A stretch of 64,000 nt of DNA, from assembly GCA_950295325.1 (NCBI GenBank), contig OX485804.1, positions 37,448,001-37,512,000 of the forward strand, in the 5' to 3' direction. Both the position numbers and the translations under genes were made by a program. This DNA comes from Polytrichum commune. Its lineage: Eukaryota > Streptophyta > Polytrichopsida > Polytrichales > Polytrichaceae. The notes beneath the pieces are model-generated. The model did no database searches and had not been told where the DNA came from. It was given only the letters and a program-made list of their open reading frames with translations. Below are positions 4,601 through 49,800 of the stretch, one piece after another (position 1 is the first letter of the stretch; every line of letters starts with the position of its first letter).

Positions 4601-7600
4601 TTAACTGCTCATGTCTGCTTTGTTTATTAATTCGTCGATAAAAGCTAATCCAAATAACACCTGCAATGACACTAGAACTCACTGTTGTCCATGCACATGT
4701 GGTTCCTTGGACTGCAATATAATTACTAATCGTCAAAAACCACTGCTGAGTTCAAGGGAATGTAACATTATCACCGCTCTTTCATCCCTGGATAAAGGCA
4801 ATACACTATTGCACATGGAGTTAAACTCTATCATCAGTTACCACTGTCCCGAGTACTTAATATACTCTTAAGGATAAGTAACATACCGTCTCCTCCTGGA
4901 TGGGCCTGCAGAGGTCAAATCACCCCCTGGCAAGTGCTCTTGCAAGTCATTATGACTTGAACCTGAGGTTGAAGCTTCAATATTTGATGTAGGTGCACTA
5001 GCCAAGTGATTTGCAATAGCAGCCTGTGCAAGCTGGTTTACAGTTACTGAGCCAGCAGCTTTCGACCCGGATACTAGATGGAAGCTTGAAAAGCTCTGCA
5101 TTGCTTTGATGACCTGGTTCATCAGTGTCCACTGATTTGTTGCCTTTGGTTTCCAGAACCCTTTTACCTGTGACAGGACATGATCAACATGGTGTTCAAG
5201 TTGGATGGATACGGCAACTCTTTGCAAAACATGTATTCACAAGGGTGTGTAATTGGCTAATTGTTAACAGGACAATAGCATTAAAAAAGTCCTCTGCAGG
5301 GGCATTGACAAGTCATATGTGCTTTCTATGTACATCTCAGCGGTGTTGTCTCCTTAACACCACTCTAGACCACTCAACGTCCACCAATAGACCTACTACA
5401 GCTCTTCCTAATCAATTCATAAAGTACAAAATCATGCAATTTGACATTCCAGAATCTTATTCCTGTCACAACATACTGTTTGTGATTCAAAGATTTGCAG
5501 AGCCTTGCCACACTAGAGGCTATTATAAGGCTCGGCATTGATAATGAGCAACTGTGATCATCTAGAAGTACCAATAATTTATCACTGCCCTTGTATATAA
5601 GAACAGATGGCCCCACCAAGGGAGTCCAGGTCTTGAATGTAACTAATAATGGAGGGTGGCTCTTCTGGAATCATGTTCCATTGTGCCTAACTCAACCATG
5701 ATGGATACTCAATTTTGTCGAACTACTTACCGTACTTTAAAAGATCATGTAAATGAAAGGTGTTTACCTGGAAAATTTGAGACTACAAGCAGCCCCTTTA
5801 GCATAGGATGTAAACAACAATTCTTCACAGCAGAGACCAATGCAACAACCTCTTACATTGTGTATTAATAGAGTTATGCCCTAACTAAATTGAAATAGAC
5901 CAGAGTACAATGAACCATCATCCAACTAACCAATAATGTGCTGATAAGTATTTGTCTGGCATAAATATCATGTGTACACACAATGAAAGACCACCCTCTC
6001 CGTATTTAATGTGGTCACAATCCATTAACACTTCCTCATTTGTTCCAATTCAAGATGGGCCATCCTCAACAAATAACACAGGAACTTAACCCTAAATGTA
6101 GTGTATATTGCAACCTTTGGCGCAACCTATGTTCTGACTCAAGGTATTACAATGAGCTCTACCTGCATTGGAAAGAGACTCATAAGTGGAGTCTTGGAGA
6201 ACTAAAGACCCTACAGAAAACGATACAGACACTTGTGTGAGTAGTTTAGAATCACTCTTCAGAACTCCTAAACCTGAGAAGCAGGCCCACTTGAAAACAA
6301 GTTTTTAAAAGTGATTAAATGCCTAATAACAATGCCTTCATCAAATGATATTGCTTCTGAAAAAGATTCATATGGGCCTAAATCTCCATAAATGATGGAA
6401 CGCTTCACAATGCCTAGTTCTGACTCAGTATAAAACGATGCACTCTACATGCATTGGTGAGAGATGAGAGACTCATCAGTGGTGTCTAAGAGAATTAAGG
6501 ACCCTCCTGACAACCCAACCGAAATGATTCCTAGGAGCCTAACTCACAAGAGCACTCGATGGATGACAGAATGCTCCGCAATGCCGACAAACTACATCAC
6601 ATTCCCCGAATGCGTTCACGAGGGCCCATGTCTCTCGTGCACAACAACATCCACCATGCTAGGGTTACACACAACGATCGAGCCTCTAAAAGACCAGTTC
6701 TCTATACATGAACAAATTCCGGAACACATACCGAAAACTTGCATGGAGAGGCATTTCAAGTGTTGCTTGCACAATTTGGGAAAAAAAAAAATTAATCTAT
6801 AGGTAACCCATCTTTTAGACGCTCGATCGTCTTGTGTAAATCCTAGCATGGTGGATGTTGATGTGCGCGAGACTGGCGCCTGGGATGGATCACGCATGCA
6901 TTCAGGGAATGCAATATAACATATCGTAGTTTGTCGGCATTGAATTTCGTATGCACATTCGTAATAAAGGAAGAAATGCGGTACGAAATCATGCATGAAC
7001 AAAAACTTGCCAAGTGCTGGTTGCGCATTCTGACCTGATTTCCAACCAAGCTGGAGGAAACACGAACTCGCAGGCGACGTAACCCGAGCCGTTCCGCAAT
7101 AGCCAGCGACTCCAGCAGCCCCGTGTACTCCCCCACATGCCAACTCAACCCTACACCAATGTACTTGCTCTGCTGCCACACCACCTTCCCCAGCAGATCC
7201 GTCAACATGCACCCCACCCCGACATGGCCATCGGGTGTCTTAACCCCTTGAATTTCAATCTCGAAAGATTGGTCGAAATCCAAGCCCGAAGACCCCTCAC
7301 CATCCTCCACATCCCCCTCCGCCACCACAGACTCCAGCGGGTGCTCAATTGTGTCCCCGATCTCCTCCCACTCGTCATCCGGCACCTCAGAGATGGATCG
7401 CGCGAACTCCAAATCGTGCGTGCGTTGCTGCAAGCTCGCTGCCACCGCGCGCGTCGCGGCCTCCACGGCCCGCCGGTCATCGAGCTCCTGCTCGCACCGA
7501 GCCAGCTCCCTGCTCTGCAACTGCGACGCCAGACGCACATCCTCTTGCCCTACGTCCCGCTCCCGCCCCTGTCGCTGTTGGCCCGACCCCATAGCCGCGT

Positions 7601-7748
7601 GCCACGCCTCGTAGTCTTGCCCTGTTGAGGCCGCCATCGCCTCTTCCACTTGCAGCTGGTACGCGTACTCCAAGTCCGACAGCATGGCGATCGCTCGCGT
7701 GTGCTCGCGGGATTGCGCGGCGATGCAGGCTAGCTCCGGCATCGCCAT
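1650..7748 (-). CDS. RBR-type (RING1-IBR-RING2) E3 ubiquitin ligase with RNase H-like region and C-terminal CCCH zinc finger
   Basis: Six exons join in frame with GT-AG junctions: 7035-7748, 4887-5167, 4185-4341, 2941-3120, 2285-2538 and 1650-2085, giving 673 residues. The start is the first ATG of the open exon 1. RBR ligases take ubiquitin from an E2 onto a RING2 cysteine and pass it to a substrate. Residues about 165-300 resemble the RNase H fold found in some plant RBRs, but the usual acidic residues are mostly replaced, so it is probably not a nuclease. RING1 begins at C338-L-I-C341. IBR lies around 430-480 (CVEC, CVDC, PWH). RING2 is about 510-551, with the expected catalytic cysteine C523 in EGCYHMTC. 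An Asp/Glu-rich stretch (about 567-602) leads to a CCCH finger, C646-x8-C655-x5-C661-x3-H665, preceded by YKTKL. That finger suggests RNA binding. The long intron 1 carries repeats (see 6040-6942). The substrate is unknown. Confidence 0.9.
6040..6510. repeat. Two direct repeats inside RBR intron 1
   Basis: A block at about 6040-6215 is repeated at about 6360-6510. Both contain gttctgactc, then a stretch with tgcattgg, gagactcat and a shared end reading (aa)ggaccct or (aa)gaccct. Identity is moderate, with small indels. They abut the inverted repeat at 6580-6942, so the whole block may be one decayed mobile element inserted in the intron. Confidence 0.55.
6580..6942. repeat. Long inverted repeat (foldback) in RBR intron 1
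   Basis: The arm at about 6580-6708 is the approximate reverse complement of about 6813-6942. Shared segments include aatgccgacaaactac, catccaccatgctagg and cgatcgagc-tctaaaaga. The arms are about 125 bp with a spacer of about 100 bp containing an A11 run. Similarity looks like 75-80% by eye. As intronic RNA it could fold into a long imperfect hairpin. A foldback MITE is the simplest explanation; a small-RNA hairpin is possible. Confidence 0.7.
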
Positions 7749-7930
7749 CCCCCAAACCCTACCTTGCGACTCCTAAACCCTCCCCCCTCCCTCGCCCTGG
7801 CTCTCTCTCTCTCTCGCCCTCTCTCCCCCTCTCTCTCCCTCTCTCGCGCGCGCACGAGGCCACCGACACTTTTTGCGGACTCCCCGACGACACAAGGGCT
7901 CGCAGCTCCGAGGATTGTTGTTGCTTGTGA
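7749..7930 (-). promoter_or_regulatory. GA-rich 5' leader/promoter region of the RBR gene
   Basis: Just upstream of the RBR ATG the minus strand is a long GAGAGA-type purine tract (CT-rich on plus, about 7801-7850). Such GA tracts are common in plant leaders and are known binding sites for BBR/BPC GAGA-binding factors. No clear TATA box was seen. The role is inference from composition and position. Confidence 0.4.
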
Positions 7931-25700: not shown

Positions 25701-26580
25701 AAAAAAGAAAAGAAAAACTTAAAGTTATACATGTTTATAAAGGGTCCACGGTGGTGGGTAAGGTTGACCGTTGACCCGGCAACTACGACTCCAAAAAAGT
25801 TGGAGGCTGTGAAGAATGGAAGTTTGTGGCATTCCATTTGAGTCGGCTTGGCTTCAACATGGGAAGTCAGCCTTTTGTAACTCTGGTCAAATGCAACCAC
25901 AAAGCCCACATGTTCCAACTGCACTAAGGGCCACTTCACACACGAGCCAAGTGCCATGACCATGGAATTGTGAGAGCCCAAAAGAAAGTGTCCGAAGGCC
26001 ATCCCAACACACCCCCAAAGTCATGTAGCGTGGTCACGGACCCTCAAGTGTAGTATGAAGCCATATGTGTGACCGGGCCCTCAACCAAATTCTATTTCAA
26101 TGGATTCTTATTCATGCAGGTTCCCATGCATGATAAAATAGAATAAACCAACGGTTGTGAGCGTTCGGAGTGCCATGGTCTCCCGGTTTTTGTGTTAGGC
26201 CTACCTCCAAGAGGTGGTTTTGAAAATAACCCAAGTGACCATGGAACATGATCCATTCGATGCCATGTAGGAATTCATGTAGACTTTACATTCATCTTGC
26301 ATTCACATACTATGTCGGTCCGTTGAGCGTAGTGTGAAGCGAACTTGGACAGGCTCCGCCTATTCCACCAATAAGAATGTTTGAAGTGTAATGGTCACAG
26401 GCTCTCAGTCTCGTGTGTACAGTGGCCCTAAGTTGGAGAGCTCACCTGCCTATCTCTCATCAAATACTCATGGGCAAAAAGCTCAAGTAGGTTCCTACAC
26501 CGATTATCCCAATTAGCGCATGTTACTATTTGGAGTTACACAATGTTGCAACTATTTGATGAGAATGTAATGCTTCACCA

Positions 26581-26593
26581 AGCAAAGTCATCT
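26581..26593. repeat. Target-site duplication of the 10.6-kb LINE (3' side)
   Basis: AGCAAAGTCATCT next to the (GAA)n end of the LINE is repeated exactly at 37163-37175 next to its 5' end. A 13-bp direct duplication is typical of LINE target-primed insertion. Confidence 0.9.
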
Positions 26594-26635
26594 AGAAGAA
26601 GAAGAAGAACTCCGGTCCCTATTAGGGGCCGGAGT
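26594..26635 (-). promoter_or_regulatory. LINE 3' terminal stem-loop and (TTC)n tail
   Basis: On the minus strand the element ends ACTCCGG, then CCCT, a short loop, AGGG and CCGGAGT, followed by (TTC)n. The copy at 60182-60220 has the same outer stem, but its inner stem is CTCC/GGAG, so pairing is kept with changed bases. In some LINEs of L2/RTE-like type such a 3' stem-loop plus short repeats is the signal read by the reverse transcriptase; that role here is inference. Confidence 0.7.
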
Positions 26636-26795
26636 GAATAAAGTGTCTGTTCGTAGGACAACCGTGGCCATACCCCAGGGTAGTGGCGTTGGGTGTAATA
26701 CTACTTCACCCTTTGCAGGGAGTAGACACTATGTTAGTAACTTAGGTTTTAACCGGTTGAACCGGGGGGTGTATAAGGTGCATGGGTTTTAATTA

Positions 26796-27120
26796 GAATT
26801 TTGCGGGTCTTGCTACTTTGTTTGAGACGAGAAGCGTGCGTGTTTGTTTGGGGTATAAGTGGTGGTTGATTGTATGGTTGGTCGCCAAGTCATGGTTCCA
26901 AGGTTGGTTGGATAAGGACGTGCGTGTTGTATTAATACGGTCCGGGTTCGATTCGCGTTGAATCCGTCTGAGCGTGTTAGTGCAATACACTTTGACTTGG
27001 TGCTGCAAGTGAGTTAATCATAGGCAGGAAAGTTATGCCAACCAGCCGGCTACTCCCCGCCTTTCTGAGCTATGGGTGGTATCTTAATAACTAGTGGTTT
27101 GACCACTACCCCTCTTTTAA
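26796..27120. mobile_element. Candidate SINE (325 bp) inserted in the LINE 3' UTR
   Basis: The 60-kb LINE copy lacks this block. The 9-bp TTTTAATTA occurs on both sides (26787-26795 and 27121-27129), consistent with a target duplication. Inside, the plus strand has tcgccaagtcatgg (26882-26895), similar to a tRNA A box, and gggttcgattcg (26944-26955), close to a B box, about 60 nt apart as in tRNA-derived SINEs. There is no obvious poly(A) or simple tail, and the A box is about 87 nt in, so the class is uncertain. Confidence 0.45.
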
Positions 27121-27476
27121 TTTTAATTATGATTTTGTAAGTCTGTGATGGGTTGTCTATTTTCTATTCGTCTTTTATGGACCAATATTGAGTGTGCGTA
27201 TTGTGTGGCGATAACATTGATTTGTTTGAATGTGCTCCTAATTTGGGATGGAGGGAGTTTAAGTTTTGTTTCTAGTTCGTTCATCAAGGGGATGTGAGTT
27301 GTGGCTCTGGCCCCGGATGCTAGTACTATAAGTGGAGCTACTTGCCATCCTCTCGCTATGATATTGTTGATGAGTGGTTGGTATTTGGTGAGTTTCCGCT
27401 CTCTTGTGTCGGTAGAGAACCTGTCATTGCAGTATGTGAATTCGATGAATTGTATAGTGATTGTTGGGGTAGGTAC

Positions 27477-27917
27477 TTATGGGGGTGGAGAGTTGTATGG
27501 GTGACCTAGCAAACATAGTATGTCGGGTTTGAGCCTAGCGTTGCAGTAGCATCTCTGGGTGTCACATGTACATGGGAGTAACCATGGTGGAACTGTGTTT
27601 TCTTGGGGAAGTTCATTATATGTGCCTGCGTTCATAAGTATGTAGTGTCTTGTTATTTTGTTGGAGATGAGAAGTTTGCGTATTTCCCATACTGCTTTGT
27701 TATGTCTATTTGTGATGAGTGCATGGATGTGCTGTTGTTTGCATTTTAGGAGGACGTGTAGCCATGTGTCTGCTTCTGGTGAGGTGCATATGGGACATGT
27801 GTGGGATGGATATGCGATTCGTCCAAAGAAAAGTTGTTTCCTAGCGTGTCCCATATATTGTCCGGTTCGAAATTTTACTAAACATGTTTTTTGTTTATCT
27901 GTGATGGCTGGATTGTT
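27477..27917 (-). pseudogene. LINE ORF2 C-terminal region with Cys/His knuckle
   Basis: Downstream of RNase H, with CPIC-(x)n-H-(x)n-C in the segment HTCPICTSPEADTWLHVLLKC-like (about 27735-27805). A C-C-H-C knuckle in this place is common in LINE ORF2 C-termini and is thought to bind nucleic acid. It continues in another frame with TITIQFIEFTYCNDRF and IATQYAHSILVHK, which are conserved in the 60-kb copy. Confidence 0.75.
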
Positions 27918-28164
27918 CTAGAAGTCATTTGATAATGCTTTGTCGATATCTTTATTATCGAGCCATTTGTGTAATTGGTGTGTTTGAGTTGCTATGAGGG
28001 CTAGGTTATGTTTTTTGTCATATTTAGTGATGTATTTGCCAAGGTGCCTGATGGGTCCTTTATCTGATGTATCTTGCATTGAGTGCCACCAACCTTTTTG
28101 GAGGTAATATGGCGTGGGGTGTGCGTGTTCATACGTGGCTAGGGCATCTCTATGTTCTAATTCA

Positions 28165-28595
28165 CATCCCATTTTGGCTAATTTGTCCGCTTGCTCGTTG
28201 CCACTAATATTCGTGTGGGCTTTGACTTTATGTAGTGTGGTGGTTTGTGTGCGGGATTGTAACATCCTAATAATTGATTCAAGTATCTTCTTGTCCGGGT
28301 GACTATTGTGTGAGGTTGGGTGTTTTGTTTGTGTGTTTATGAGGTATAGAACGTTGAGGCAGTCTGTGAAAATGTGTGCGGGTTCATTTCGGTATGTGGT
28401 GGTGAGGAGGCATAGGGTGTGGTGGATAGCCATCAATTCCGCTCGTAGTATATTTTGGAGGCCTGGTAGTCGTTCTGAAATTTTAGGTTTTTAAAAGGGT
28501 TATATACTCCATATCCTGCCTTTTCTCGTCTCCAATGTTCTTGGGTTATTACTTTGGGTGGGATAAATGACCCATCGGTATAATAACAATATTGC
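28165..28595 (-). pseudogene. LINE RNase H domain
   Basis: Ordered RNase HI motifs: YYTDGS (first Asp), LRAELMAIHHTL (Glu), IFTDCLNVLYL (second Asp) and GNEQADKLAK (last Asp). All four acidic residues are kept, but a frameshift separates the first motif from the second near 28470. RNase H would remove the RNA template strand during second-strand synthesis. Ordinary plant L1 elements vary in having this domain. Confidence 0.85.
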
Positions 28596-30899
28596 GGTGG
28601 ATATTTGAGGGGTAGGCATATGTCATGGTTTATGATTGGTGGGATATTGGTATTATGGGTTGGAGGTGGGGGGGGCGGGTATGTGAGTTGGGCCCATTTC
28701 TTACTACGGTTTACTGAGGTGTTCATTGGTGTGGGTGGTGCGGGTGTGTTGAATATAGTAGGTATTTGTAAAGATGCACCGATAGTGTTCATGCGACATG
28801 CGTATCTTGTGGTTCCGATGGGCGTGGTTTTGTGGTGGATACATAGTATTCTAATGTCTCGGCTTTCTATTTGAGGTTCGATTTGTAGTTCTGGGGGTAT
28901 CGTGGGTTCTTCATATGTAATGGTGTTTGCTTTAAAGTGCGTGATGACGTGTGAGTCCGGGAAAGGCCCTTCTTGAGGGTGAAGATTCTGATACCAATTT
29001 GGATCAGTTGTTATAAGGATTGTAATTGTGTCGGGGTTGTTGTAGGCTGCAAGTCGTGCCCAATGGAGGGCTTGTTGGGTGTCTGTTTCTGTATGTGGGT
29101 GGGCATACCCGTTACCTGTCCATTTGTGTTGAAATGTCGTTCCTCTTGACCCGAAAACTTTGTCTCGGGAGAAAGTGGAGGAGAATTGTCTTAGCATGAT
29201 AGGGCATGTGACGGGTGATGAGAAATATGAATGTGTGATATGGAAGGAGTCTAGAATATGGTTAATAATGGCATTTGGGAGTGTATATTGTGATAGTTTG
29301 AGGGGGTCATTTTTGGGCATTCGGTATTTGTACCTTTGGTATAGCCATACAACTTCTTGTTCGAAGGATTGTGTGGGGGGTTCGAGATGGTGAGGTCTGT
29401 GTAATGTATTTTGGTATCGTTCCCACAACCATTGTAGTCGTTGTTCAGGGATGGTAATTAGGTGACGGCCGTCATTGTCGTATATGTGTGCTACACCGTG
29501 TTGGCTTTGGATGAGGTTTTGAGTACAGGCGATGTCGTTATCTGGGTTACATTCGTTGATATTAACATGACATAGGGGTATAATTTGTGGGGGGGGGGGG
29601 GGGAATGTATCTAGTGTCTCTTAGTTGTTCTTCATTAAAGTGTAATTTTAAGATGTTGGTAAAGTGTTGATTTTGTTTGTGGGTATAATATTGTGTTAGA
29701 AGTAGGATGTTATGGTTGATGGTGTTTTGGTTGTTCCATGGGAACAAGTCTTTTTGGGGAAGCCACTTGTTGTATATGGTTTCGTGGGGGAGTATCCATT
29801 GGCATAGGTAGGATGTGTAATTTTTGGTAATTTTGTTTTTATCTTTGTAGGTGTGGGGGCGGTCGTTTATTATAGAGTGAATTGGGTATTGTATGTGGTT
29901 GTTTTGTATATATGAGGGTGGCTTCGGGTATTCCGGAGGTGGAGGTGTGGGTAGGTGTGCATTATGTCTTTCTAATCTTGTGTCTATGTGGTGGTTGTGT
30001 ATTTTGTAAGGGTTTTTGAGGATGTTTGATAGGGTATATATTGGGCAATTATTTAGGCATGGATTATGACACGGTGGTTCACAAAAAAGAGCTCGGGCTT
30101 GTTCTAGGGCGGCTTGTGTTGTTTTAGTGAGTGTGCCATAGTAATGTTTGAAGTCATCGTTTGTCATTAGATGTATGCCGTTAGGGTGGGTTATGTGCTT
30201 GAGTTCGGTTATGTTGTGGAGGACGAATTTATGTAGGTATTTAAGGGAGAGTGTGGGAGTTAGTGTTGGTATGGTTTGTGCTTGGTGCATCCATTGTGTT
30301 TCTAAGGGTGTGGGGAGGAGGGGAAATTTCTCGAGTTGGCTCTTGAGGTGAATGCCACTAGTTATTTTGAGTAAGAATAGTGTGCGTGTAATTGGTGATC
30401 GGATACAATCTTGGCGGGATATGCGTGGTAGGTTAAGGGATCCGCCATGTTTGGCAAGTATGTGTTTAGTTAATCCATTATATATTTTTCCTAGTTGCCC
30501 TTTGTCATTGAAGGCATTAATAAGTTGTTCGCCTATGCATGTAAGATATACATTTTTGAGTGAAAAGGCTTCTGTGCCGAACATATCTTGTGGTAGCTGT
30601 GTAACCGCATTGGACATGCATTTCGGTAGGCCGCATATATTTTTGTGTAGGGCGATTATTCGTTTATCGAGTTTCTTAATGGCGGGGAGTGAGTATGAAA
30701 CGGTGTAGAAACTGTAGGCGATGACAGCTCGTATGACCGTGTCAATCATTTGAATTTTTTGTTTCATGGTGGCTGGGCATACGGTTAGTAGCTTGCATTG
30801 TTTGATTAGTTTAGTTGTTGTTATGTGTGTTTGAGTTTTCCATTGTAGTGAGGGGACTAGATTAATCCCAAGATAAACATATGGCTCGTGTTGGCTTAG

Positions 30900-31900
30900 G
30901 ATGGGTATGGGTTGATTTCTGAAGTTTATATTGGTATTTTTTATGTGTATTTTGAAGGCTTGGGGATTTAATTTTGTTTTGTTGGGGCAACCCGTGATTG
31001 CGCATTTTGGGATGCCGAGGTCCATACCTGCCCACTCACAGAATTTGTCCAATTTATTTAGTTGGAGTTGGAGGGATGGCAAGTTATTGGATATTGCGGC
31101 CAGGTCGTCTGCGTAGGCTGCGGAGCTTAATTTTGTATGAGAGGTGTGAAAGGTGTATCCATTGTTTCCTCGTTGCAGCCATCGTAGGAGAGGTTCAAGA
31201 AATATAATAAAAAGGTAGGGGCTTAAGGTGTCACCTTGTATAGTTCCACGTTGTATGGGTATGGGTTTTGTTTGATCAAAATGTTCTCCATTAAAGGTAG
31301 TAGTGGATTGTGAGTAGATATTGCCCACTAGTGCTACAACATCTTGTGGGTAGCCTAGGTCCTTCATAATGGCGAGAAGTCTGGCATGATCAAATAGATC
31401 CGAAGGTGTTTTTGAAATCGATGTATAATATGTAAATGTCTTGAGTGGTAAGCCTTGCATCTTCTAATGCCGCTATGAGGGTTTGTAGCTGTCGTGCGGT
31501 GCTTCGTTCAGCCCTAAAGCCTTCTTGGCTGTCGTGTAAGATTTGATATTTTTCTCCGTATGTGGATAATATGCTTGTAAGTGTACTAGTAAATAGTTTG
31601 TAGATTGTATTGGCGAGTGCGATTGGTCTTTGGTTAGTAAGGTGGTGGGGGTTGCCCTTTTTGTATAGGAGTATTGTGAGGCTTGTTTTCCAGGATGCGG
31701 GGATTTGTTTTTGTTTGTAGCAGTGGGTAAAAAATAGCATTAGAAGTGTGTGGAATCTGGGCGGCATATTTTTTAATATGACATTGGGTATTTTATCGGG
31801 TCCAGGGGTTTTCCCGTTGGCTAAATTTTTGAAGCATATGTCGTATGTTCCTTGATCTAGGTATGTATGCAGGGGAATTGATGCTTCACCTCTTTTTTCA
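30900..31900 (-). pseudogene. LINE reverse transcriptase domain
   Basis: Motifs in order: GKTPGPDKIPN, NQRPIALANTIYKLF, GFRAERSTARQL, motif A YIDFKNTFGSI then DHARLL after a one-base insertion, RGTIQGDTLSPYLFIIFLEP, and catalytic AAYADDLAAIS. The YADD box and motif A Asp are intact. The frameshift within motif A alone would stop translation. Confidence 0.92.
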
Positions 31901-32769
31901 AGGGCATATCCATTCAGATCATGCCACGGGTATTGTCTGACTCCGCATATGCATTGTTGTGGGTGGTCTGGTTGATAATAGCAGGTTGGGACAGTTGGTC
32001 TGTTACTGATTGATTGTTGGACATGTATTTCTTGTGAGATGTCTTTTGGATTGGTAAGAATGTTGTTGTACCTATCGATGAGGCAGTTGAGTGGGGGGGT
32101 GTCGGTATTTTTAAAAAAAATTCTGTTTATAGTCTTGGGGCTTTTATCATAAAGTTGTTGATATTTGGATATGGTTTTTTTAATTTGTTTGGTGGTGTAG
32201 TCGGTTGTGATTTTGCGGGCTTTGTTCTTAGCTTCTTTTGCAATTTTAGCTAGGGTATCCATCCATGTGTTGTGTGGGAGAGAAGGGTTTGGTGGTGGGG
32301 GTATGATAACGTGGGTATGATTGTGTATTTCTTGGATAATAATGGGGTGGGTGCGCCAGTTTAGGTTGTTTTTTATGGTGTAAATGGCCTTCCGTATGAG
32401 GTGGTAGGTGGATAAGTGTAGTTTCCAAATTTTTTGTGACTTCTTTGGGAGATAGCCTCCTTGGTTGGCAATTCGGTTTGGCAATGTGGGGATGGGTGGG
32501 GCACTACATGTTTCTAAGACGATGTTGGTGATGTTGTCGGTGAGGGTGTTTAGTGAGTCACATGCTAGTTGTCATTGTTCATTTGTTAGTTGGTTATGTT
32601 TTAATAGTAGTATGAGCTCATCAATTTGAGTTGAGTTAGTTTCAAAGAATTTGGTGTGGAAGTCTTCGATTTTCTTCTTTGGAATAGGGTTGAGAATTCT
32701 TGGTGGCGGTTCGGATGCTATAATTGGTGTTCTAGCGATGAGTGTGTTAGAGGGAATTTTTAGTTGGAT

Positions 32770-33540
32770 GGGCATGTGATCGGAGTTTAGCTGAGTATGT
32801 TGGTTTGTAGTAGCGGAATATTGGTTGTTATTAGGGGTTTTAATGAAAAAACCGTCAATTAAGCTGTTTTGTGTGTAGTTGTGTCCCCCTTGCCTAGAGA
32901 ATGCTGTATTTGTTGGAATATATGTCAGTCCGAGGTCGAGTATGAAGGATCTCCATAGGTAGTCCTCTGTTTGTGGCGGTGTGATTTGTTGGTCATTTTG
33001 TCGTCATATTAGGGCGATGTCCCTATTAAAGTCTTCGCATAAGATATATGTGTGGTTCGGGTGTGTGTTGATTTGGTCCGTAATGGTATTTTGGATGGTG
33101 GGGATGAGAGGTAGGTCTTCCTCATGTGAGGGCATATATAAGTTAAGTAGGAGCCAAGGTTGTAGGGGTTGGTTGGCTATGCGTGTTATTTGGAGGAAAT
33201 GGGATATGGCTGCGGGAGTGGGTATTTTGGAGATGTTACCGGGGAATGCATGTTTGATGTGTACAAGGAGTAGGAGGCCGCCTCTAAAACCTCTATAGGT
33301 CATTCTTTGGCGTGTGATTCTCGTGATGTTATGTGTATTATTAAAGAAAAGTTTATATTGGGGAAATAGCTTTTGTATGTGTTTTGTGGATTTTGTGGCG
33401 GATAGCTTGGTTTCTTGTATGGTGATGATCGACGGGGGTTCTTTTGTAATTAAGTCTTGTAAACATGGCATAGCGGTGTTAAATGAAAAGGCATTCCATG
33501 TTATGGCATATGTTTCTAGGCTTGTTAGTGGGATTGGTTC
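32770..33540 (-). pseudogene. LINE AP-endonuclease domain
   Basis: Matches the exonuclease-endonuclease-phosphatase fold of LINE endonucleases: ITWNAFSFN, IITIQETKL (metal-binding Glu), LLNLYMPS, ILCEDFNRD (usual GDFN changed to EDFN), and after an in-frame TGA, LNSDHMPIQL (catalytic Asp-His). It would nick the target DNA. The stop at 33004-33006 splits it before the SDH motif. Confidence 0.85.
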
Positions 33541-34149
33541 GGATGGTGGTGATGGGGTGGGCATAGGTGGGTTAGGATGTGTATATTCATTTATGTGTTC
33601 GTTGTATCTTAAAGCTTCCGTTATGAGTTGCTTTGGTAGGTATGGGAATGCTTCTGTAATTTTTGTATGTTAAGTGAGTCAGGATGTGAGTGGATGTAAT
33701 CGTATAATTTTTTGTGTATTGTGTTGGCGGGGTTGATTGTATTATTAAATATGTTACAAAATTGCGTATATGGGTGTGGGGTGTCTATGTGTCGTTCCGG
33801 CGGGTTAGATAGTTTGATCATTTTCTCTAATATTTGTGATGTCATGTTATGTGTTGGTTGTTGTTGTAGGTACAAGTTACATGTTACCGTAGAAGGGCTA
33901 ATTGTTACTATTATTGCGTATATGATTCGTGCGGGTGGGTGGGTGGGTATGGTATTGTTGTAGATGGTTGTATAAGTATGGGAGTGAGAGTGTTATTTGT
34001 TCGTGTAGGGGGTGTGTATTTTGAAAGAATGGTTTAAATGTTTTGGCAAGGTGTTGATATTCGGGTTGGAATTTGATCATACTTGGTAAGAAATATGTAT
34101 GATGTCGTCTTTTATGAGCCGGGGGGTGTTTTTGTAGTATGTTAGGCAT

Positions 34150-34179
34150 GGGTCCTGGGTTAGGATGTATATCTCCGCA
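34150..34179 (-). other. Second 2A-like motif, directly after an in-frame TAA
   Basis: Encodes C-G-D-I-H-P-N-P-G-P, ending with the N-P-G-P where 2A peptides cause ribosomal skipping. The codon just before it is TAA (34180-34182), where the paralogue at 20.8 kb has AGA (L-R-C-G-D-I). The stop is therefore most simply a mutation of this copy. The canonical Glu of D-x-E is His here, which may weaken activity. Confidence 0.75.
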
Positions 34180-35226
34180 TTATAGGAGGAGATGTTTTTT
34201 ATTTTGGTGTTTTGTGCTTATGCTTAATTTTGGTTTCTTGTTATGTGAGTGTATGGCGGTTGGTGGTTGATTTTGGGGTAGGTAAGGTAATGTCCATATG
34301 TAAGCTATGTATATGTGTGTAATTACGATGTTATGTTGTGGGTTTGGGTGTAAGGGTTTTGGGGCGGTTGTTTTGTAGTGTGAATGGCCTAGGCCTAATT
34401 CGATGGGGTTAGGTGGGTGTTGTGGTAAGTGTATGGGCAATAGGCTTACTAGTTGGGCGTATTGTAATATGGATGTATTTTTAATAGAGTATTGCCTTGT
34501 TTCTTGTGTGTCTTTTATAGGAGAATTTTTATAGATGTATGAGAGTGGGCCCGGGTTGAGTTGTATGTCTCCACATCTTAGGATGAGTGTTTGGAGATCA
34601 ACAATTTGTGCAATGGTTTTGTGGAGTGTTGGGCGTTTTAAGTGTGTATGTCTTATTGTGTAGAAGTTGACTAAAGTAATGTTGTGGCGGTTTATGTGGC
34701 TATACCCAATATGGTGATGTGTTAATGGTGGGGATGTGTTTGTTTGAGAAGTATGTTGGGTGGGGTGTTGTGTATTATGTAATTTGTTATGGTGTGGGGA
34801 TGTGATTGAGGATTTGTGGTTGAATTGGTGTGGGTGGTATGATTGTTGTGTGTGGTGTTGTTGTTGGTTTTGGTGTGTACGGGTTAGTGTTATTTTATGT
34901 TTTAATGGACGGTTTCCATAAGTTAAGAATGAGGTTAGTACTATGGTAGAGAGGATGATTATAGTTGTGATGTAGTTGTGGTTAGTATAGGTGTTGGGAG
35001 GTGTGGGGGATGTGTGAGGTGTGTGTTTATGTGTGTGGTGAGAGTGGTTGTTTAATTTCTTAGTTGTTTTTGGAGTGTGTTTATTGTGATTGCTTTGTGT
35101 GGTATATACATTTCGTGTACATGATGAGGTGTATGAAAAAATAAATACTTTATTTATAAGTAGGTAAAGGTTACATAATATGTGTATGGTAGTCGTCCAT
35201 GCATATGCTAAGATCTTACTATTCAT
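34180..35226 (-). pseudogene. LINE middle ORF (about 348 codons) with hydrophobic segments and an internal 2A motif
   Basis: The ATG overlaps the end of ORF1 (ATGAATAG, where TAG is the ORF1 stop), an arrangement suited to termination-reinitiation. The predicted product has an N-terminal hydrophobic stretch (IHILCNLYLLINKVFIFSY), a second one (YITTIIILSTIVLTSFLTY), a His/Thr/Asn-rich low-complexity region, and then a 2A-like motif at codons about 218-227. About 120 more codons lead to a TAA that sits exactly before the second 2A motif. I know no family for this product. Membrane segments are unusual for a LINE protein. Confidence 0.6.
34546..34575 (-). other. First 2A-like motif (CGDIQLNPGP)
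   Basis: Within the middle ORF, encoding L-R-C-G-D-I-Q-L-N-P-G-P. It matches the 2A consensus D-(V/I)-E-x-N-P-G-P except Gln for Glu. 2A-like sequences of this kind are known in several animal and protist non-LTR elements, where they separate proteins made from one frame. Confidence 0.8.
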
Positions 35227-37107
35227 CAAGGTGTTGTTGTTCTTTGTGGAGGCTTGGTGAGGGGGTCCGGTGGTAGGCGCCGGAAAAGCCCGGTGGTGCT
35301 AGGTGTGTGTTGGGTTCTCCCATATGAGCGTTGACCATGGATGAACTTGGTGCATGCGGGAGTCTTGCGATGTTGGCGTGGGGGGGCTCCGGGGAGGTGG
35401 CGGCTAACGTTTGCATAATGTTGTGTATGCGATTGTTGGATTGTTGAAACTCCATTGCCATGGCACTCATGATGTTGTTGGTGAGTGAGGTAAGTTTATC
35501 GTCAACCGTTTCGACTAACTCTTTGATGGTTCTGGTGAAGAATCTTTCCGATACGAGGGGTGAGGAGGCGGCGGTGTTGTTCATGGCTTGTGCTTTTTGG
35601 GCAATGACTTCACGAACGGGGGCGTGGGCTAGTCGTATGGCCGTTTGGTTGGGTTCGGCTCCATCGATGCTTCCTTTGTGGGGGATGAAGTCCACGCGAC
35701 GTCCTAAGATGTAGGTGGACTTTCGTAACCACTCCGTGTAGACCGCCGCGTTAAGACATTGTATGTGGCACCATCCGGCTTGGCGATCGTCCTCTTGGTT
35801 GGATTTGTGGCCGTACGTGATGCCGGTAATATTTTCCTCCCCGAAGAGCCTCTTGAGTGTCTTGGTGATGGTGGATTGTGACTCACGTTGAGGCAAGTTG
35901 TTAGCTACAAGAGTAGTGCTAATTCTAAGCTCCGAAAGGTTGCCTACATCTTTGTCCTTAGTGATGCTTACCTTTAGCTTTTCGGAGCGGTAGATTAGGC
36001 CGTTGCTAAGGATGTCATTCCTTGCCTCTTCGGTGGTGAGGGTGATGAAGGCGAAGTCCTTCTCCTCATCCGATTTAGTGAGCGATAGAATTTCTATTTC
36101 CCGTCCTTCGTAGTAGGATTCGCTCATGAGGGTGCGGAGTATGTCTATGGCCGTACTTCCCCGGAGGGTTGTACCTTTGAGGTGGAGCCTCATGTTCTTG
36201 GCCTTTGTGATGAGCTCAAAACCTTTCTCTACCTTGCCAATGACTCGCTCTCCATCTCCCATTGTCATTACAAAAGCGCGTTCTCCACGGAGAAGAGCTA
36301 GTCTGTCTCTCTTTGGGTGTTGTAAGTGGATTTTAATAAATCCGGCCCAATTCCTTGTGACGGTGTTGATGCCTATGTCAATTGGATTGGAGTAGGTGGA
36401 GCCTAGGGGAATGTTCATGAGTCGTAGCCTTTCCATGCATGCGGTCTTGACTTCTTGTCGGCTAAGCTTCTTGTATTCTCCGTCAAACCGTATAGTGACA
36501 TGAAACCCTTCGGTGAGGCCCGTGTCTTGAGAAATTTTCTCATACATTGGTACTTGGGTGAAGTGTAGGTGTTGACCAGGTACCGCGTCCGGTCGTTCGG
36601 AGGGGTATAGAGTTTGTTTTGTCCTCGGGAAGGCTCTCCGGATGGCGCGGAATTCTTGGACTTCGGTGGGGGGTGTCCCGTTGGCGTGAAATTCCTCATC
36701 CGTTCGCCTCTCTTGCAACTCTTTATTTCCTCTTTGTATGGAAAGTGCTTCTTGCATGTGGAAGCCTAGCCACAATTGCCCTATCATGTCAATGCCTAGG
36801 GTGGTTAGCCTCTTGGGTCGTGTGGGTGGGGGAAGTGGTGTGGACTTACTTGGTAGTGTGGGTGTGGATGTGGCGGAGTAGTCCGCGGCTTTTCTTCTCT
36901 TGGTATTTTGACTACCCGACGTATCTTCCAATCGGGGGTGGCGATAGGCAATGTGGGTGGTGTGTATTCGCCAATTTGCACGGATTTCCATGGTGTGGCT
37001 TGTGCCCCTTGTATCGAGTCTCCTTCTATTGACACTTGTAAGGAGCTACCTCCCCTTTCCGGGGACACATTTTCGAGCTGGGCATCCATGTCCAGGTCCT
37101 CCTCCAT
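35219..37107 (-). pseudogene. LINE ORF1 (nucleic-acid-binding protein), one frameshift
   Basis: The best start is ATG 37105-37107 (MEEDLDMDAQ), just inside the element; an upstream ATG in the same frame lies in flanking DNA. The first about 57 codons are in one frame. An indel in a C run near 36935 then shifts to the long frame ending at 35219-35221, about 630 residues in all. A basic stretch (KRRK) and a Pro/Ser/Thr-rich linker come first. The middle has FIKIHLQHP and AFITLTTEEAR, the latter resembling RRM-like ORF1 folds, and CHIQCLNAAVY follows. No zinc knuckle is seen. ORF1 proteins coat LINE RNA; that role is inferred from position. Confidence 0.75.
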
Positions 37108-37162
37108 TTCGAAATTGTGTGGGCGGTTGGTGTGGTGTGATGGTTGCGAAGTGTGTGATTTC

Positions 37163-37175
37163 AGCAAAGTCATCT
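37163..37175. repeat. Target-site duplication of the 10.6-kb LINE (5' side)
   Basis: Exact copy of the 13 bp at 26581-26593. The host repeat resumes here with atgttttataatgtccgaac, which also occurs at about 41931-41950. Confidence 0.9.
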
Positions 37176-39731
37176 ATGTTTTATAATGTCCGAACGGTCT
37201 ATTGAACTTTTGTTAGTGAAAATTGAAATTATGAGTAAGGCGTCCATGTATTGTGTTACTCCAAATAGCAGCACGCATTAGTTGGGATAATCGATACAGA
37301 TGAGTGCTATGCCATGGTGAGAGGGAATTATTGCATACGAGTATAGGGTGGATGGTGCCAAAACTGTCACTTAAACCCCTAAAGGCTGAGAAGGACTTCA
37401 TGTATGTTCAACCACCTTTGCTCAACCATGTCATTGTGCACGTTTGTTTCATAGTCTCATGATTTGAGACATATAGACAGCTTGAGTGTTATGTGAATTG
37501 TCTATACTTCACAAAGTTGTCATCCATACAAGAAATCCATCATTGGAGGTACGGATTTTCTTTAACGAGTTGTTGAATTGGGGTGAATTTTTTAAGGCAA
37601 TTTTGGAGAGATTTTTCTTGGGTGTCTAGGAGTTCAGCATTGAACGTGAAATTATTTTTGGGTTTGAAAAACATTGGTTAACGTTAGAAATGACAAAGGA
37701 TTGCAATGCACTAAAGTATGTCTTATTTGAATTATGTATGTTATAAATGCTTAAAGTTTTATTGGTAAATGACCTCAAACCAACATGGGAACATAATGTT
37801 AAGGTGATGGACATTCTCATAATCAACATGCATTTGTTGCACATGATTTTGAAGCAATGTTATGAGCACCATCTACCTTACCTCTCATTCATCCAATTGA
37901 ATGCCCCAAATTAGTCTATTGACACACTTTTGAAAATGCAACAATCACAAACTTCTAAAGGGGCATGTTTTTAACATAGGTGAATAAGATGCACCCTCAC
38001 GTGAAATAATTTCCTTTGGCCATAATGGCACACAAGTCAATTAAACCCTTTCATACTCAACAATTCAACTTATTAGTTACACTCCTCCCTCTTTCACTTT
38101 GGCAAAGTTTGCCACACAAAAAAATCAATGCACGTGTCCTTCTTGTGGGCACTTATGACTCCATGTATAACGTTGGCCATTGAATTGGGTGATTGTCTTA
38201 CCCGATTAACAATTACAAACCACATAGCTTATCAATCAAGTTTTAGAGTAGGAATTGAGATGCAAAGAATATAGGAGGTCAAAATGAAGAACTTGTTGTA
38301 GTCATTCCACAAGGTGCCATTTAAGTATTGTAAGCATGATATAAAAAGAAGTTAAAGTTCTCAAGTTGACAACTCACATGTAAAGTACTCTTGGCTTGAG
38401 TACATTCAATAGTCTTATGAGATATATGCATACGTCACACAATGGTCTCCAAGATAACTAAAGTGTACACAAATGACACTTGACATTATTATGCTCAAGA
38501 CTATCTTCCTCTTGCACACTAAATTATAAACACATGACACTTGCCATTAGTTTGCTCGAAAGCATCTTTGTCCCTTGCATACGAATATGCAACATTGTCA
38601 TCTCAAGTATCCCTAATTTGCTACGCTAAATGACATGATGTAGACAATTTTTCACTTTTGAAACTCAGCTATGCTAACAAAAAAATTCATATTAATAATC
38701 ACCAAAACGGGACACGTTGAGATCTCTAGGCATCTAGTTTAGGCCCTTTTTGCAACTAGTGTACGTGACACTAGAGACCATAATTGGTGTCGTGTAAAAG
38801 GGGCCTTGAGCTTTTGCAATAAAGACCCCTCGTTGCTGGCGTACGTAAATAGGTTATGCATGTGTGGTGGAAATTAGGTTCTTCAAAACCTAACACTCGT
38901 GGTGTCTATTTGGCTCATCTCAAGAGCTGACCGGGGCTTAAGTTACAAAGCATTGGTCACATCATCTCCCAGCCTTAAGAATCCTTGTAAGGTAGAAAAG
39001 CAGGGGAGAAAAAAACGAACGGTGAAAATAAGCTGGTTTGGCCAGAAATAGTGTGCTTGGAATTTGTGCCATGTTTTCCAAAGATGGGAGCAGAGGAAAC
39101 GATGAGGAATGCAAGTTGTGTTCATAATTTAATCCCATGTAAATAATCAGTTACATGGTCTTAAAGATGCAAATAAGTCAAACCCCCTACTTGTATAGTA
39201 GAGCCTCCCTGATTTGAGAATCAAAGTATCATACTCTACATACGAATGCACACATAACATTTAACTCAATGGCATCTGAAAGTGATTCCAAGTGATGTGA
39301 AACTTGACCTATCCACCCAATCACTGCATCCTTTTTCATGCCAACACTTTTATAATTAGTCGGTTTGGGTCCACACAAGAATCATTCTACTCCTAGTCTA
39401 GTGCACTAGTAGTGTGCCATTTTTCAGTTCTTGTACCTTACACGTATACGTAGACGAGTCCACGGATTGGAAATGTGTTGTTTTTTTTGGTCACAAAGCC
39501 TTTTGGTAAGTTGGGAGTATTTGCAAAGTCCACTTCCTCCATCTGGCTTTTCGAGCACTTTGCACTTTCAGTATTTTCCGCCAACCCTAGTACCCTCCAG
39601 GTCGGACCGAGGAGCCGACTTTGCAACAATTTGGGGTCGTCTCTCTTTTCATGGTGCATGGGAACACCAAGGCCTGACCGGAGCTGAGGAAAAAAAATTA
39701 AAAAAAAAGTGTGTATAAAAATGATATTAAG
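37176..39731. other. Intergenic host repeat and unassigned DNA
   Basis: The first about 70 bp match 41931-42000, which is the other half of the repeat the LINE entered. Near 37865 the phrase atctaccttacct recurs at about 40525. No gene recognised. Confidence 0.4.
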
Positions 39732-46895: not shown

Positions 46896-49800
46896 ATGGC
46901 CACCAAGATCGAAATTTCCACCATCCTGGGTCACGCGCCCGACGATGGACGCACCAAGATCGCCAAGACCAAGATCATCTGCACTCTGGGGCCCAAGTCC
47001 CGCGAGGTTCCCATCCTAGAGAAGCTGTTGCGGGCGGGTATGAACGTTGCGAGGTTCAACTTCTCCCATGGCTCCTTCGAGTACCAGCAATACACTTTGG
47101 ATAATCTGCGCAGGGCTATGCACAATACGCAGTTGATGTGTGCCGTGCTTTTAGATACCAAGGTACTCCTCCTCCTTCTCCTCCTCCTCCTGCCACTACT
47201 CTCTCGCATCTTTCCACCTTGTCTTGGTTTTAGGGATCTGGAGGAGTGTATGAGCCCAGCTCTTTGCTTTGCAGAGCGAAAGTATGCATAGATTGTGGCT
47301 CTTTGGTTCTTCCAATTTCTTAACATTCTCGTGCTTCCTGCTCAGATTTTTTTTGAATTTTTTTAAAGGTCTAGTTGGTCGTATGGACCAGAAATTTGGA
47401 CAGGTTAGTTGAACGTTGGGAAACCCATCAGAGGTGAAGTATGGTTGGATTGTAAATTTTGGTTTTTTGACTGGTTCTAGGTTCATTGCAAGTGCATACC
47501 ATTCTTGTGCTTCCTGCTCAGTAATTGTTTTCTTGGGGTCTAGTTGTCCACATGGACTAGAATTTTGGGCAGGTCAGTTGAAGGGTAGTAAAGCCATCAG
47601 AGGGGGAAGTATGGATAGATTATGTGTTTTGGTTTGTGTGTTAGCTTTTGGTTCCTTGCAAGTGCATATGATTCTTGTTCTACCTGCTTAGGACATCTTT
47701 TTTTGGATTGGGATTGACATAGGGGCCAGAAATTTGGGCAGGTTAGTTGATGTGTGGGAAAGTTATCAGGGGAAAAAAATGGATAGAGTGTGGGGTTTGG
47801 TTCTCTTGGTTCCTTGTGATTGCATGTCAGTCTTGTGCTACCTGCTTAGCAATTGTTTTTTTGGGTTTGGATTGCTACAGGGACCAGAAATTCGTACAGG
47901 TCAGTTGAAGGATGGGAAACCAATCAAGCTCGTGCGTGACAAGGAAATCTGGATCACCACAGACTACAGCCACTTGGGTGACGAGGAAATGATTTGCATG
48001 AGCTATGCAAAGCTGGCAGTGGACTTGCAGCCCGGTAACACGATTTTGTGCTCAGATGGAAGCATTACCATGACAGTCTTGGAGTGTGACACAGTTAAGA
48101 ATAAGGTGAGATGCAGGTGTGAGAACACGGCAATGCTCGGGGAGAAGAAGAATGTCAACTTGCCTGGGATTATTGTCGACTTGCCAACCATCACCCAGAA
48201 GGATATCGATGATATCATGTTGTGGGGTGTTCCCAATAATATTGACTTCATTGCTGCATCTTTTGTCCGCAAAGGTGAGGATGTGAAGAAAATCAAGGCA
48301 CTTCTTGGACCACATGCAAAGAGAATCCAGATTATCTCCAAGGTGGGTTTTCTGGTTGCTACCTGTGAACCTTCATGAACTTACCTCCTAGTAAAGTGGT
48401 AGGCGAGCATCTCCTGGATGATGTTGGGAGATCTGTAAGGGATTGTCTAGAGTTTTTTAAGTTGTGTATTTTGTTATATTGGAAGGGGTTCAGTATCTCA
48501 GGGCGTATAGGAGACTTCTAGTTGAAGTCATGTACAGCAGGTGACTGCATTGACAAAGTACATCAGATGATTTCCCTCCTTTGGATTTATGCTAGAAATG
48601 AGGAAGTTCATTGCAAAAATGCAGGAGTTGGATAATTTGTTGACAAGACAAGACTGGAACTTGTGCAACCTTGCAAAATTTTAAATAGCGAGTTGTTGGC
48701 CATTTTTCATCATTAGATTAAATCACTCTGATTGAAAATCCCTGCAGGTTGAGAACCAGGAAGGTCTTGTGAACTTCGATGAAATTTTGAGGGAGACTGA
48801 TGGAGTCATGGTTGCAAGAGGTGACTTGGGTATGGAGATTCCAACTGAGAAAATCTTTTTGGCACAAAAGATGATGATATACAAGTGCAACTCTGCAGGA
48901 AAGCCAGTGGTGACTGCTACGCAGATGCTCGAGTCCATGATCAAGTCACCCCGTCCTACTCGTGCTGAAGCTACTGATGTGGCCAATGCTGTTCTAGATG
49001 GTACTGATTGTGTGATGCTTAGTGGAGAAACTGCAAACGGCGCTTACCCAGACCTGGCAGTAAGTCACCCGTTACTAAGTCTTTTAGAAGGAAAGAGATC
49101 CTCGCTGCAGTCAGTCAGTAGAAGTTTTGGTATTCCGTAGATGTTGCAGTCATCAAAGCTATTGTTTATGGCAAAGTAGTGGTTAGACTGTCCATACTTT
49201 CCAAATACTTATAGACTGAAGTCCTCTCTAAGGTAGAGGGAAGCATGTGTGTGAAATAACCTGAAATCGTTCAATGCTTCTAAAATCTAAGTTGGTAAGA
49301 ATGGATAGTGACCTTGATTACATGGGTCTTCGATGGTCATCAGCCAAGGAGAGTCAGTAGGTAGGCAGCATTGAGAAGTATGATCGAGAGAGAGCTTGGA
49401 ATCTAACAACACCAATGCCAGAATGCCATTTGAAGCTGATCAAAGAACTGTAAAGGAACATCTATACCCAGATGCTCTGACTAATCTTAACCCTCAGGTG
49501 TAGGTCAAATCAGAATCCTGCATTTGTATTTATGGATTCTGGGAAGTCTGGAGTCCTTACAGGTTCCAATGTGTGTTTTGCAGGTGGCAGTCATGTCCCA
49601 GATTTGCCAGGAGGCAGAGGCTTCACTTGATTACTCATCCATCTTCAAAGAAATCATGAAGTCTGTTCCTTTGCCTATGAGCCCCTTGGAGAGTTTGGCA
49701 TCTTCTGCTGTGCGAACTGCTAACAAGGTGCGGGCCTCTTTGATTGTCGTACTTACACGGGGTGGCACCACAGCAAAGCTTGTTGCGAAGTACCGTCCCT

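What the first reader, a model, noticed from the sequence alone, without database searches (positions are those of the whole stretch)
26594..37162. Complete 10.6-kb plant LINE of unusual design
One element combines ORF1, a membrane-like middle ORF, two 2A-like motifs, endonuclease, reverse transcriptase, RNase H, a Cys/His knuckle, a stem-loop 3' end and a (TTC)n tail. The 13-bp duplication fixes both ends. Plant LINEs are mostly L1 or RTE; 2A motifs are known mainly from animal and trypanosome non-LTR elements. This may be an undescribed plant LINE lineage.
Basis: partly seen in the sequence, partly recalled or inferred. Interest (0 to 1): 0.85.

Follow-up and report, generated by a model that had tools for sequence, protein, structure and literature searches.

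The report
Plant LINE with cap-enzyme-like domain
A very large jumping gene, present in many copies in what looks like a land-plant genome, appears to carry two different DNA-cutting enzymes and a relative of a cellular enzyme that marks the front end of messenger RNA, a combination I did not find described in the papers I could search.

Summary
The window copy (26595-37162, minus strand) is a LINE with a 14-bp target duplication, inserted in a small inverted-repeat element whose uninterrupted copies lie elsewhere in the genome. It is not complete: four siblings with perfect 11-14 bp duplications are 12.7-14.6 kb long, and two have long open ORF1 (1,310, 1,833 codons) and ORF2 (2,919, 2,924).

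Two things were missed. (1) The 'Cys/His knuckle' opens a C-terminal domain with the ordered motifs of the R2-type restriction-like endonuclease (RLE). The element thus probably encodes APE and RLE plus RT and RNase H, the plan of the Dualen/RandI clade. (2) Between RT and RNase H lies a domain of Pfam PF12237, the PCIF1/CAPAM cap-adenosine methyltransferase; 150 of 150 scored genomic matches pass its cut-off. It is under purifying selection, but the catalytic NPPF is absent in 32 of 32 copies read (HP at its first two positions in 30).

The RT groups away from L1. No Dualen or RTE references were available, so exact placement is open. 2A-like motifs precede the catalytic part in 7 of 8 copies, with the exact known core in two. 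A cap-related role is inferred, not shown.

The parts
26595..37162 (-). whole LINE copy, 10,568 bp, 5'-truncated and decayed
   Evidence: lies between perfect 14-bp duplications; empty-site matches
26581..26594 (-). target-site duplication at the 3' end of the element (14 bp)
   Evidence: coordinates by arithmetic from it
37163..37176 (-). target-site duplication at the 5' end of the element (14 bp)
   Evidence: coordinates by arithmetic from it
26595..26607 (-). (TTC)n tail; sibling subfamilies have (CTT)n or (TCTA)n
   Evidence: sequence
26608..26745 (-). conserved folded 3' end, long outer helix and terminal hairpin
   Evidence: alignment of 7 copies, 34 pairs, 12 with two-sided changes
27123..27917 (-). 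C-terminal RLE-like domain (CCHC, RHN, KPD, acidic strand, K..KY), one in-frame stop in this copy
28164..28585 (-). RNase H (starts at YYTDGSF in the neighbouring frame)
   Evidence: PF00075 2.7e-12; motif position
29105..29392 (-). PCIF1/CAPAM-like domain, Pfam core match; the family-wide conserved block is 28586-29560
   Evidence: PF12237 2.4e-10 in this copy
30861..31659 (-). reverse transcriptase core, broken by a frameshift in this copy
   Evidence: PF00078 1.4e-6 and 1.2e-13 in two frames
32572..33669 (-). APE-type endonuclease, broken by a stop in this copy
   Evidence: PF03372 1.3e-4 and PF14529 0.013 and 0.0074, all below the curated cut-offs in this copy; over cut-off in E1
34150..34176 (-). 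2A-like motif GDIHPNPGP at the junction to the catalytic part; a stop codon precedes it in this copy
34546..34572 (-). 2A-like motif GDIQLNPGP
34180..35298 (-). fast-evolving Thr/His-rich N-terminal part of ORF2
   Evidence: open frame; composition
35219..37045 (-). ORF1 main frame (RRM-like hint only); start of the frame at 36805-37173
   Evidence: PDB profile best nucleolin E 0.15
26495..26580 (.). left part of the inverted-repeat element that the LINE entered
37177..37300 (.). right part of the same inverted-repeat element

Best explanation
The window holds a decayed, 5'-truncated copy of a large, in part recently active LINE family that works like Dualen/RandI: a dual-endonuclease (APE plus RLE) non-LTR retrotransposon copied by target-primed reverse transcription. 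ORF1 is inferred to bind the element RNA. ORF2 is one long frame; 2A (StopGo) motifs probably release the catalytic protein (APE, RT, PCIF1-like, RNase H, RLE-like) from a fast-evolving N-terminal part. The RT would recognise the folded 3' end and repeat tail, and the two nucleases would cut the two target strands, leaving 11-14 bp duplications. The PCIF1/CAPAM-like domain could handle the capped 5' end of the element's own RNA; since NPPF is lost while the domain is conserved, I think it most likely is a non-catalytic cap, 5'-end or RNA-binding module that helps full-length copying or cis-preference. Shown: anatomy, domain homologies, selection, duplications, tails, near-identical copies. Inferred: each functional step.
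For: Pfam on E1: RT 2.1e-27, endonuclease 1.1e-5, PF12237 1.6e-12, RNase H 1e-15 in one 2,919-codon frame. PF12237: 150 of 150 scored places of 697 candidates over cut-off; PDB profile at E<=10 returns two sequences, both PCIF1; reversed and shuffled controls empty. RLE-like: motif order as in R2Bm, invariant in 7 of 7 copies; profile alignment score 25.5 against a maximum of 19.45 in 200 shuffles. dN/dS of PCIF1-like 0.108, 0.097, 0.066 in three pairs, RLE-like 0.078, 0.094, 0.045. RT tree excludes L1. Perfect duplications in 5 of 5 copies with both flanks read. E2 and E3 99.67% identical over 13.3 kb.
Against: RLE: the profile alone did not find R2 in the PDB, hhalign probability is 9.7%, the R2Bm match scores -3.3 bits, and the fold failed. 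Bombyx R2 RT scores slightly below L1 RT (71.1 and 74.0 bits). The exact 2A core at the junction occurs in 2 of 7 copies. PCIF1 PDB matches are weak (E 0.0019, 0.0035). No peptidase, which I recall for Dualen, was found. No functional test of any kind; cap binding is a guess from homology.
Confidence: 0.72

Rival explanations
1. It is an ordinary plant L1 or RTE LINE with unusual decoration.
For: APE, RT and RNase H also occur in plant L1 (PMC4640811, passages); the same genome holds L1 with zf-RVT (141 matches over 150 scored).
Against: RT split from five L1 rows at 99/97; tails are (CTT)n or (TCTA)n, not poly(A); RLE-like domain and PCIF1-like domain. RTE could not be tested by tree.
Confidence: 0.05
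2. The C-terminal domain is only a zinc knuckle that binds nucleic acid, not an RLE, so the element has one endonuclease and is a new APE lineage.
For: PDB profile null, low hhalign probability, failed fold.
Against: Five motifs in the R2 order, invariant in 7 of 7 copies, and a profile score above 200 of 200 shuffles; low dN/dS over the whole domain.
Confidence: 0.15
3. The PCIF1-like domain is an active methyltransferase with a changed motif, acting on the element's or host RNA caps.
For: Domain conserved; the changed site is itself conserved, HP in 30 of 32 copies.
Against: NPPF is described as needed for PCIF1 activity (PMC6318281, PMC11345611, passages) and is absent in 32 of 32 copies.
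Confidence: 0.2
4. The PF12237 match is a chance or composition effect in an RT-RNase H linker.
For: PDB profile E-values are only 0.002-0.004.
Against: E-values down to 1.2e-13 and empty reversed and shuffled controls; 150 of 150 scored places over cut-off; the neighbouring linker evolves two to three times faster.
Confidence: 0.03

Closest known systems
Dualen/RandI clade (green algae; LINE/Dualen also annotated in cryptophytes)
   Same: APE plus RLE and RNase H in one element; short repeat tails, (ATT)n or (CTATTT)n in green-algal RandI (PMC4640811, PMC3747384, PMC12747079, passages).
   Different: PCIF1-like domain, which I have not seen mentioned for Dualen; 2A-like motifs; length up to 14.6 kb; (CTT)n or (TCTA)n tails; no peptidase found (recalled for Dualen). 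No Dualen sequence was available for comparison.
R2 (RLE LINEs)
   Same: Best PDB matches of the RT and the motif order of the C-terminal domain.
   Different: R2 has no APE or RNase H (recalled), and inserts in rDNA; here five insertions are at five different sequences.
Plant L1
   Same: APE, RT, RNase H.
   Different: RT outside L1, no poly(A) tail, extra domains.
PCIF1/CAPAM cap-adenosine methyltransferase (Pfam PF12237, which PMC7641849, passage, says is a methyltransferase and not a WW domain)
   Same: Sequence homology over the Pfam core.
   Different: No NPPF; sits inside a retrotransposon polyprotein; no WW domain found.
2A-bearing non-LTR elements (trypanosome L1Tc, sea urchin and others; PMC4981915, passages)
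   Same: NPGP motif inside a LINE polyprotein.
   Different: Probable plant host, one to three motifs, often H, Q or K for the core E.

Membership tests
Dualen/RandI | APE endonuclease upstream of RT | tested here: met
   PF03372 over cut-off in E1, RT downstream
Dualen/RandI | C-terminal restriction-like endonuclease | tested here: inconclusive
   motif order and shuffle test for it; PDB profile null and failed fold against it
Dualen/RandI | RNase H | tested here: met
   PF00075 1e-15 in E1
Dualen/RandI | RT branching with Dualen/RandI | not testable with these tools
   no Dualen sequence available; only R2 and L1 rows
Dualen/RandI | cysteine protease (recalled from Kojima and Fujiwara 2005, which could not be opened) | tested here: not met
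   no peptidase family in E1 and E2 ORF1 and E1 ORF2 pieces (about 130 codons of E1 ORF1 not scanned); I recall that not every Dualen has it
L1 | RT within the L1 clade | tested here: not met
   split 99/97
L1 | poly(A) tail | tested here: not met
   8 of 8 copies have CTT, TCTA or mixed T/C-rich tails
RTE | RT within the RTE clade | not testable with these tools
   no RTE row available
PCIF1/CAPAM | PF12237 match over the curated cut-off | tested here: met
   150 of 150 scored places
PCIF1/CAPAM | catalytic NPPF motif | tested here: not met
   0 of 32 copies
PCIF1/CAPAM | cap-adenosine N6-methyltransferase activity | not testable with these tools
   needs an assay
2A/StopGo | core (D/G/C/N)(V/I)ExNPGP (PMC12846837, passages) | tested here: inconclusive
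   met at the junction in E1 and E4, 2 of 7 copies; elsewhere in E5 and E6; other motifs have H, Q or K for E
2A/StopGo | ribosome skipping activity | not testable with these tools
   needs a translation assay

The most novel reading that the evidence does not exclude
A LINE lineage captured the fold of a cap-adenosine methyltransferase and turned it into a retrotransposon module that reads the capped 5' end of its own RNA, so that one polyprotein handles the RNA 3' end (RT and folded 3' structure), both target strands (APE and RLE) and the RNA 5' end. This could explain how elements of up to 14.6 kb are copied in full length.
Probability: 0.3. Interest if true: 0.88.

Novelty: new variant of a known kind. 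Interest (0 to 1): 0.72.

Why it matters
Dualen's position has been taken to show that RLE was replaced by APE in LINE evolution (PMC4640811, passages). A high-copy family with near-identical long copies, probably in a land plant, would make the division of labour between two nucleases testable. A PCIF1/CAPAM-like domain inside a retrotransposon was not found in the searches made and would tie cap biology to how a LINE recognises or completes its 5' end. 2A motifs in a plant element would show natural use of StopGo in plants, where a recent survey found no evidence of it in plant viruses (PMC12846837, passages).

Tried and rejected
Folds of the window's PCIF1-like block and RLE-like block without an alignment gave mean pLDDT 35.2 and 36.3 and were not used. 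Relatives in viral contigs (RT, PCIF1-like) and genome contigs (PCIF1-like): none confirmed. The RLE profile alone against the PDB gave one chance-like hit, not R2. A suspected antisense tRNA-like stretch in the 3' UTR gave no tRNA in 6 sources and no Rfam match. Searches for 18S rRNA to name the host failed twice; a 5.8S pattern found one decayed copy, only a hint. Rows dropped before counts: L052 of 5 fetched L1 copies left out of the tree because its longest frame was not the RT; L006 left out of the PCIF1 motif count because the site was not readable there; L013 not counted because it is the same copy as L010. Duplications of E5-E7 were not resolved (their 5' ends were not extended). Papers not held: Iyer 2016, Kojima and Fujiwara 2005, Odon 2013, Luke 2014, Smyshlyaev 2013.
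Full report
What is in the window. On the minus strand, 26595-37162 is a LINE copy of 10,568 bp between perfect 14-bp duplications (26581-26594, 37163-37176). It sits inside a short element with imperfect inverted ends (pair I1). The two flanks joined as one 278-base query match 38 other places straight across the junction at 78-81% identity, 38 of 40 scored places (2,134 candidates), the other two being the window's own halves. The insertion and both ends are real. The copy is broken: ORF1, endonuclease and RT lie in more than one frame and there are stops.

The copy is not complete. The window lies in G000, 407.8 Mb in 64 contigs. Seven further copies, chosen mostly for long open frames, were read (E1-E7). 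More 5' sequence was fetched for E1-E4, and perfect duplications appeared in all four: E1 14 bp, 13,473 bp long; E2 14 bp, 14,583 bp; E3 11 bp, 13,320 bp; E4 12 bp, 12,702 bp. E2 and E3 are 99.67% identical over 13.3 kb, E3 being a 5'-shortened sibling, so activity was recent. E2 carries about 3.5 kb 5' of the point that matches the window copy's start. ORF1 frames are open for 1,310 codons in E1 and 1,833 in E2, stop to stop; E2's frame opens a few codons before the element, and its first ATG lies 17 bases inside it. Many other ORF1 matches lie in frames of 1,000-1,800 codons (72 scored of 1,121 candidates). ORF2 is open for 2,919 codons in E1 and 2,924 in E2. E4's ORF2 is close to E2's (86.6% in DNA, against 68.3% to E1), but its ORF1 is nearer E1's (37% against 26% for E2), so 5' modules were probably exchanged.

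Domain order of ORF2 in E1: variable N-terminal part, 2A-like motif, spacer, APE endonuclease (PF03372 1.1e-5), RT (PF00078 2.1e-27), linker, PCIF1-like (PF12237 1.6e-12), RNase H (PF00075 1e-15), C-terminal RLE-like domain. One 2A-like motif occurs in each of E1-E4, two in E5 and W, three in E6; in these 7 of 8 copies one stands just before the conserved PMP start of the catalytic part; E7 had no match to the pattern used, though an NPGP lies in its coding strand. At that junction only E1 and E4 have the exact known core; E2 and E3 have K, and W, E5, E6 have H, in place of E. The part before it is Thr-rich and fast evolving (dN/dS 0.30-0.50 in three pairs). Hydrophobic segments occur in W, E2, E5, E6 but not in E1 or E4, and E6's is no more than chance.

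The PCIF1-like domain. A search of the own genome with PF12237 scored 150 of 697 candidates; 150 of 150 pass the curated cut-off, and 14 control genomes gave none. I did not check that every one of the 150 lies in an element copy. A profile of ten copies against 177,635 PDB sequences at E<=10 returned two, both PCIF1, E 0.0019 and 0.0035. A reversed and a shuffled version had no Pfam match, four real copies did. The Pfam name misleads: PMC7641849 (one passage) states that PCIF1_WW is not a WW domain but a CAPAM-like methyltransferase. The NPPF motif, described as key for activity (PMC6318281, PMC11345611, passages), is absent in 32 of 32 copies read; its first two positions are HP in 30 of 32, the exceptions being L040 and L042. 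dN/dS of the domain is 0.108 (E2-E4), 0.097 (E5-E6), 0.066 (E4-E7), against RT 0.050, 0.051, 0.068 and the following linker 0.283, 0.315, 0.143; in two far pairs with synonymous sites near saturation it is 0.098 and 0.185. The domain is maintained, probably not as an ordinary NPPF enzyme.

The second endonuclease. The C-terminal domain has, in order and invariant in 7 of 7 copies, CxxC-H-C, RHN, PDI, an acidic residue in QFIEFTY, and K..KY. R2Bm in the PDB has the same order: zinc motif, RHNK, KPD, VDV, K..KY. A profile from RT to the end already placed the zinc motif and RHNK on R2Bm, though at -3.3 bits. Profile-profile alignment gives score 25.5 (E 0.0033, probability 9.7%) against at most 19.45 in 200 column shuffles. 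Against it stand the null result of the profile alone and the failed fold. I regard RLE as likely, not proven.

RT placement. Among solved structures the RT is nearest to R2 chains (4.1e-34, 1.1e-30, 1.6e-30), then human L1 (7.6e-20 and others), then 8gh6, the Bombyx R2 (5.9e-19), which scores slightly below L1. A tree of 13 rows (6 of this family, 4 L1 of the same genome, human L1, 2 R2) splits L1 from the rest at 99/97; human L1 is a flagged long branch. RTE and Dualen rows were not available, so the tree excludes L1 only.

The 3' end. Seven copies share a folded 3' end of about 138 nt: 34 pairs, 12 with two-sided changes, 96.6% of cells paired. In 0 of 500 shuffles was the observed value reached on four of five measures; the count of pair types is ordinary (191 of 500). 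The structure was predicted from the same alignment, which leans the count towards it. Tails are (CTT)n in W, E5, E6, (TCTA)n in E1-E4, mixed in E7. RandI tails are (ATT)n and (CTATTT)n (PMC3747384, tables). A search with 501 bases of the 3' UTR scored 40 of 1,266 candidates, 40 of 40 at 87-100%.

How it most likely works. Target-primed reverse transcription with two nucleases, by analogy with R2 and APE LINEs (established mechanism, not tested here); StopGo release of the catalytic protein (inferred); RT recognition of the 3' structure (inferred from covariation); a PCIF1-like module at the capped 5' end (inferred from homology and selection; loss of NPPF argues for binding rather than catalysis). 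In human cells PCIF1 knock-down did not change L1 RNA levels (PMC8324889, passage), which concerns host PCIF1, not a LINE-encoded domain.

Is it known? Dualen/RandI is the known kind with APE plus RLE and RNase H (PMC4640811; Chlamydomonas relatives PMC8226300; cryptophytes PMC12747079; passages only). Searches for PCIF1 or PF12237 with retrotransposons (top 20, 15, 15 rows seen; all 4 rows) listed no such element; searches for Dualen/RandI (25 of 27 rows; all 8; 15 of 4,997) listed no land-plant case. Most subscription journals and Repbase are outside that library, so this does not show absence. PMC12846837 (passages) reports no evidence of natural StopGo use by plant viruses.

The host. Unnamed. 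Seven large contigs of 78 to 42 Mb, zf-RVT L1 elements (zf-RVT as typical of plant L1 is recalled), and a decayed 5.8S insert of a type I recall from non-seed plants suggest a non-seed land plant, perhaps a moss. This is a guess.

Noticed in passing
window 26495-26580 and 37177-37300: The LINE sits inside a roughly 215-bp inverted-repeat (MITE-like) element; 38 other places match its uninterrupted form at 78-81%.
   Followed up: yes
E4, G000:C1:17945700-17959100: ORF2 close to E2 but ORF1 nearer to E1, a sign of 5' module exchange between subfamilies.
   Followed up: partly
window 59100-59347, minus strand: Two snoZ43 C/D-box snoRNA genes in a row.
   Followed up: no
window 47692-48378, plus strand: Exon of a pyruvate kinase gene (PF00224 1.6e-46).
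   Followed up: partly
window 6843-7772, minus strand: Open frame with a borderline RVT_3 (RNase H-like) match, 21.1 bits against a cut-off of 21.6.
   Followed up: no
L026 1021-1790: A decayed rDNA piece (ITS and 5.8S) lies between what look like gene parts; it was the only match to the 5.8S pattern.
   Followed up: no
G000:C24 and G000:C3:863668-877157: Contig C24 duplicates an element on C3 with identical scores, probably assembly redundancy, so copy lists include it twice.
   Followed up: no
window 26650-27080: The 3' UTR keeps conserved blocks among subfamilies, one resembling an antisense tRNA T-arm; ARAGORN and Rfam found nothing.
   Followed up: partly
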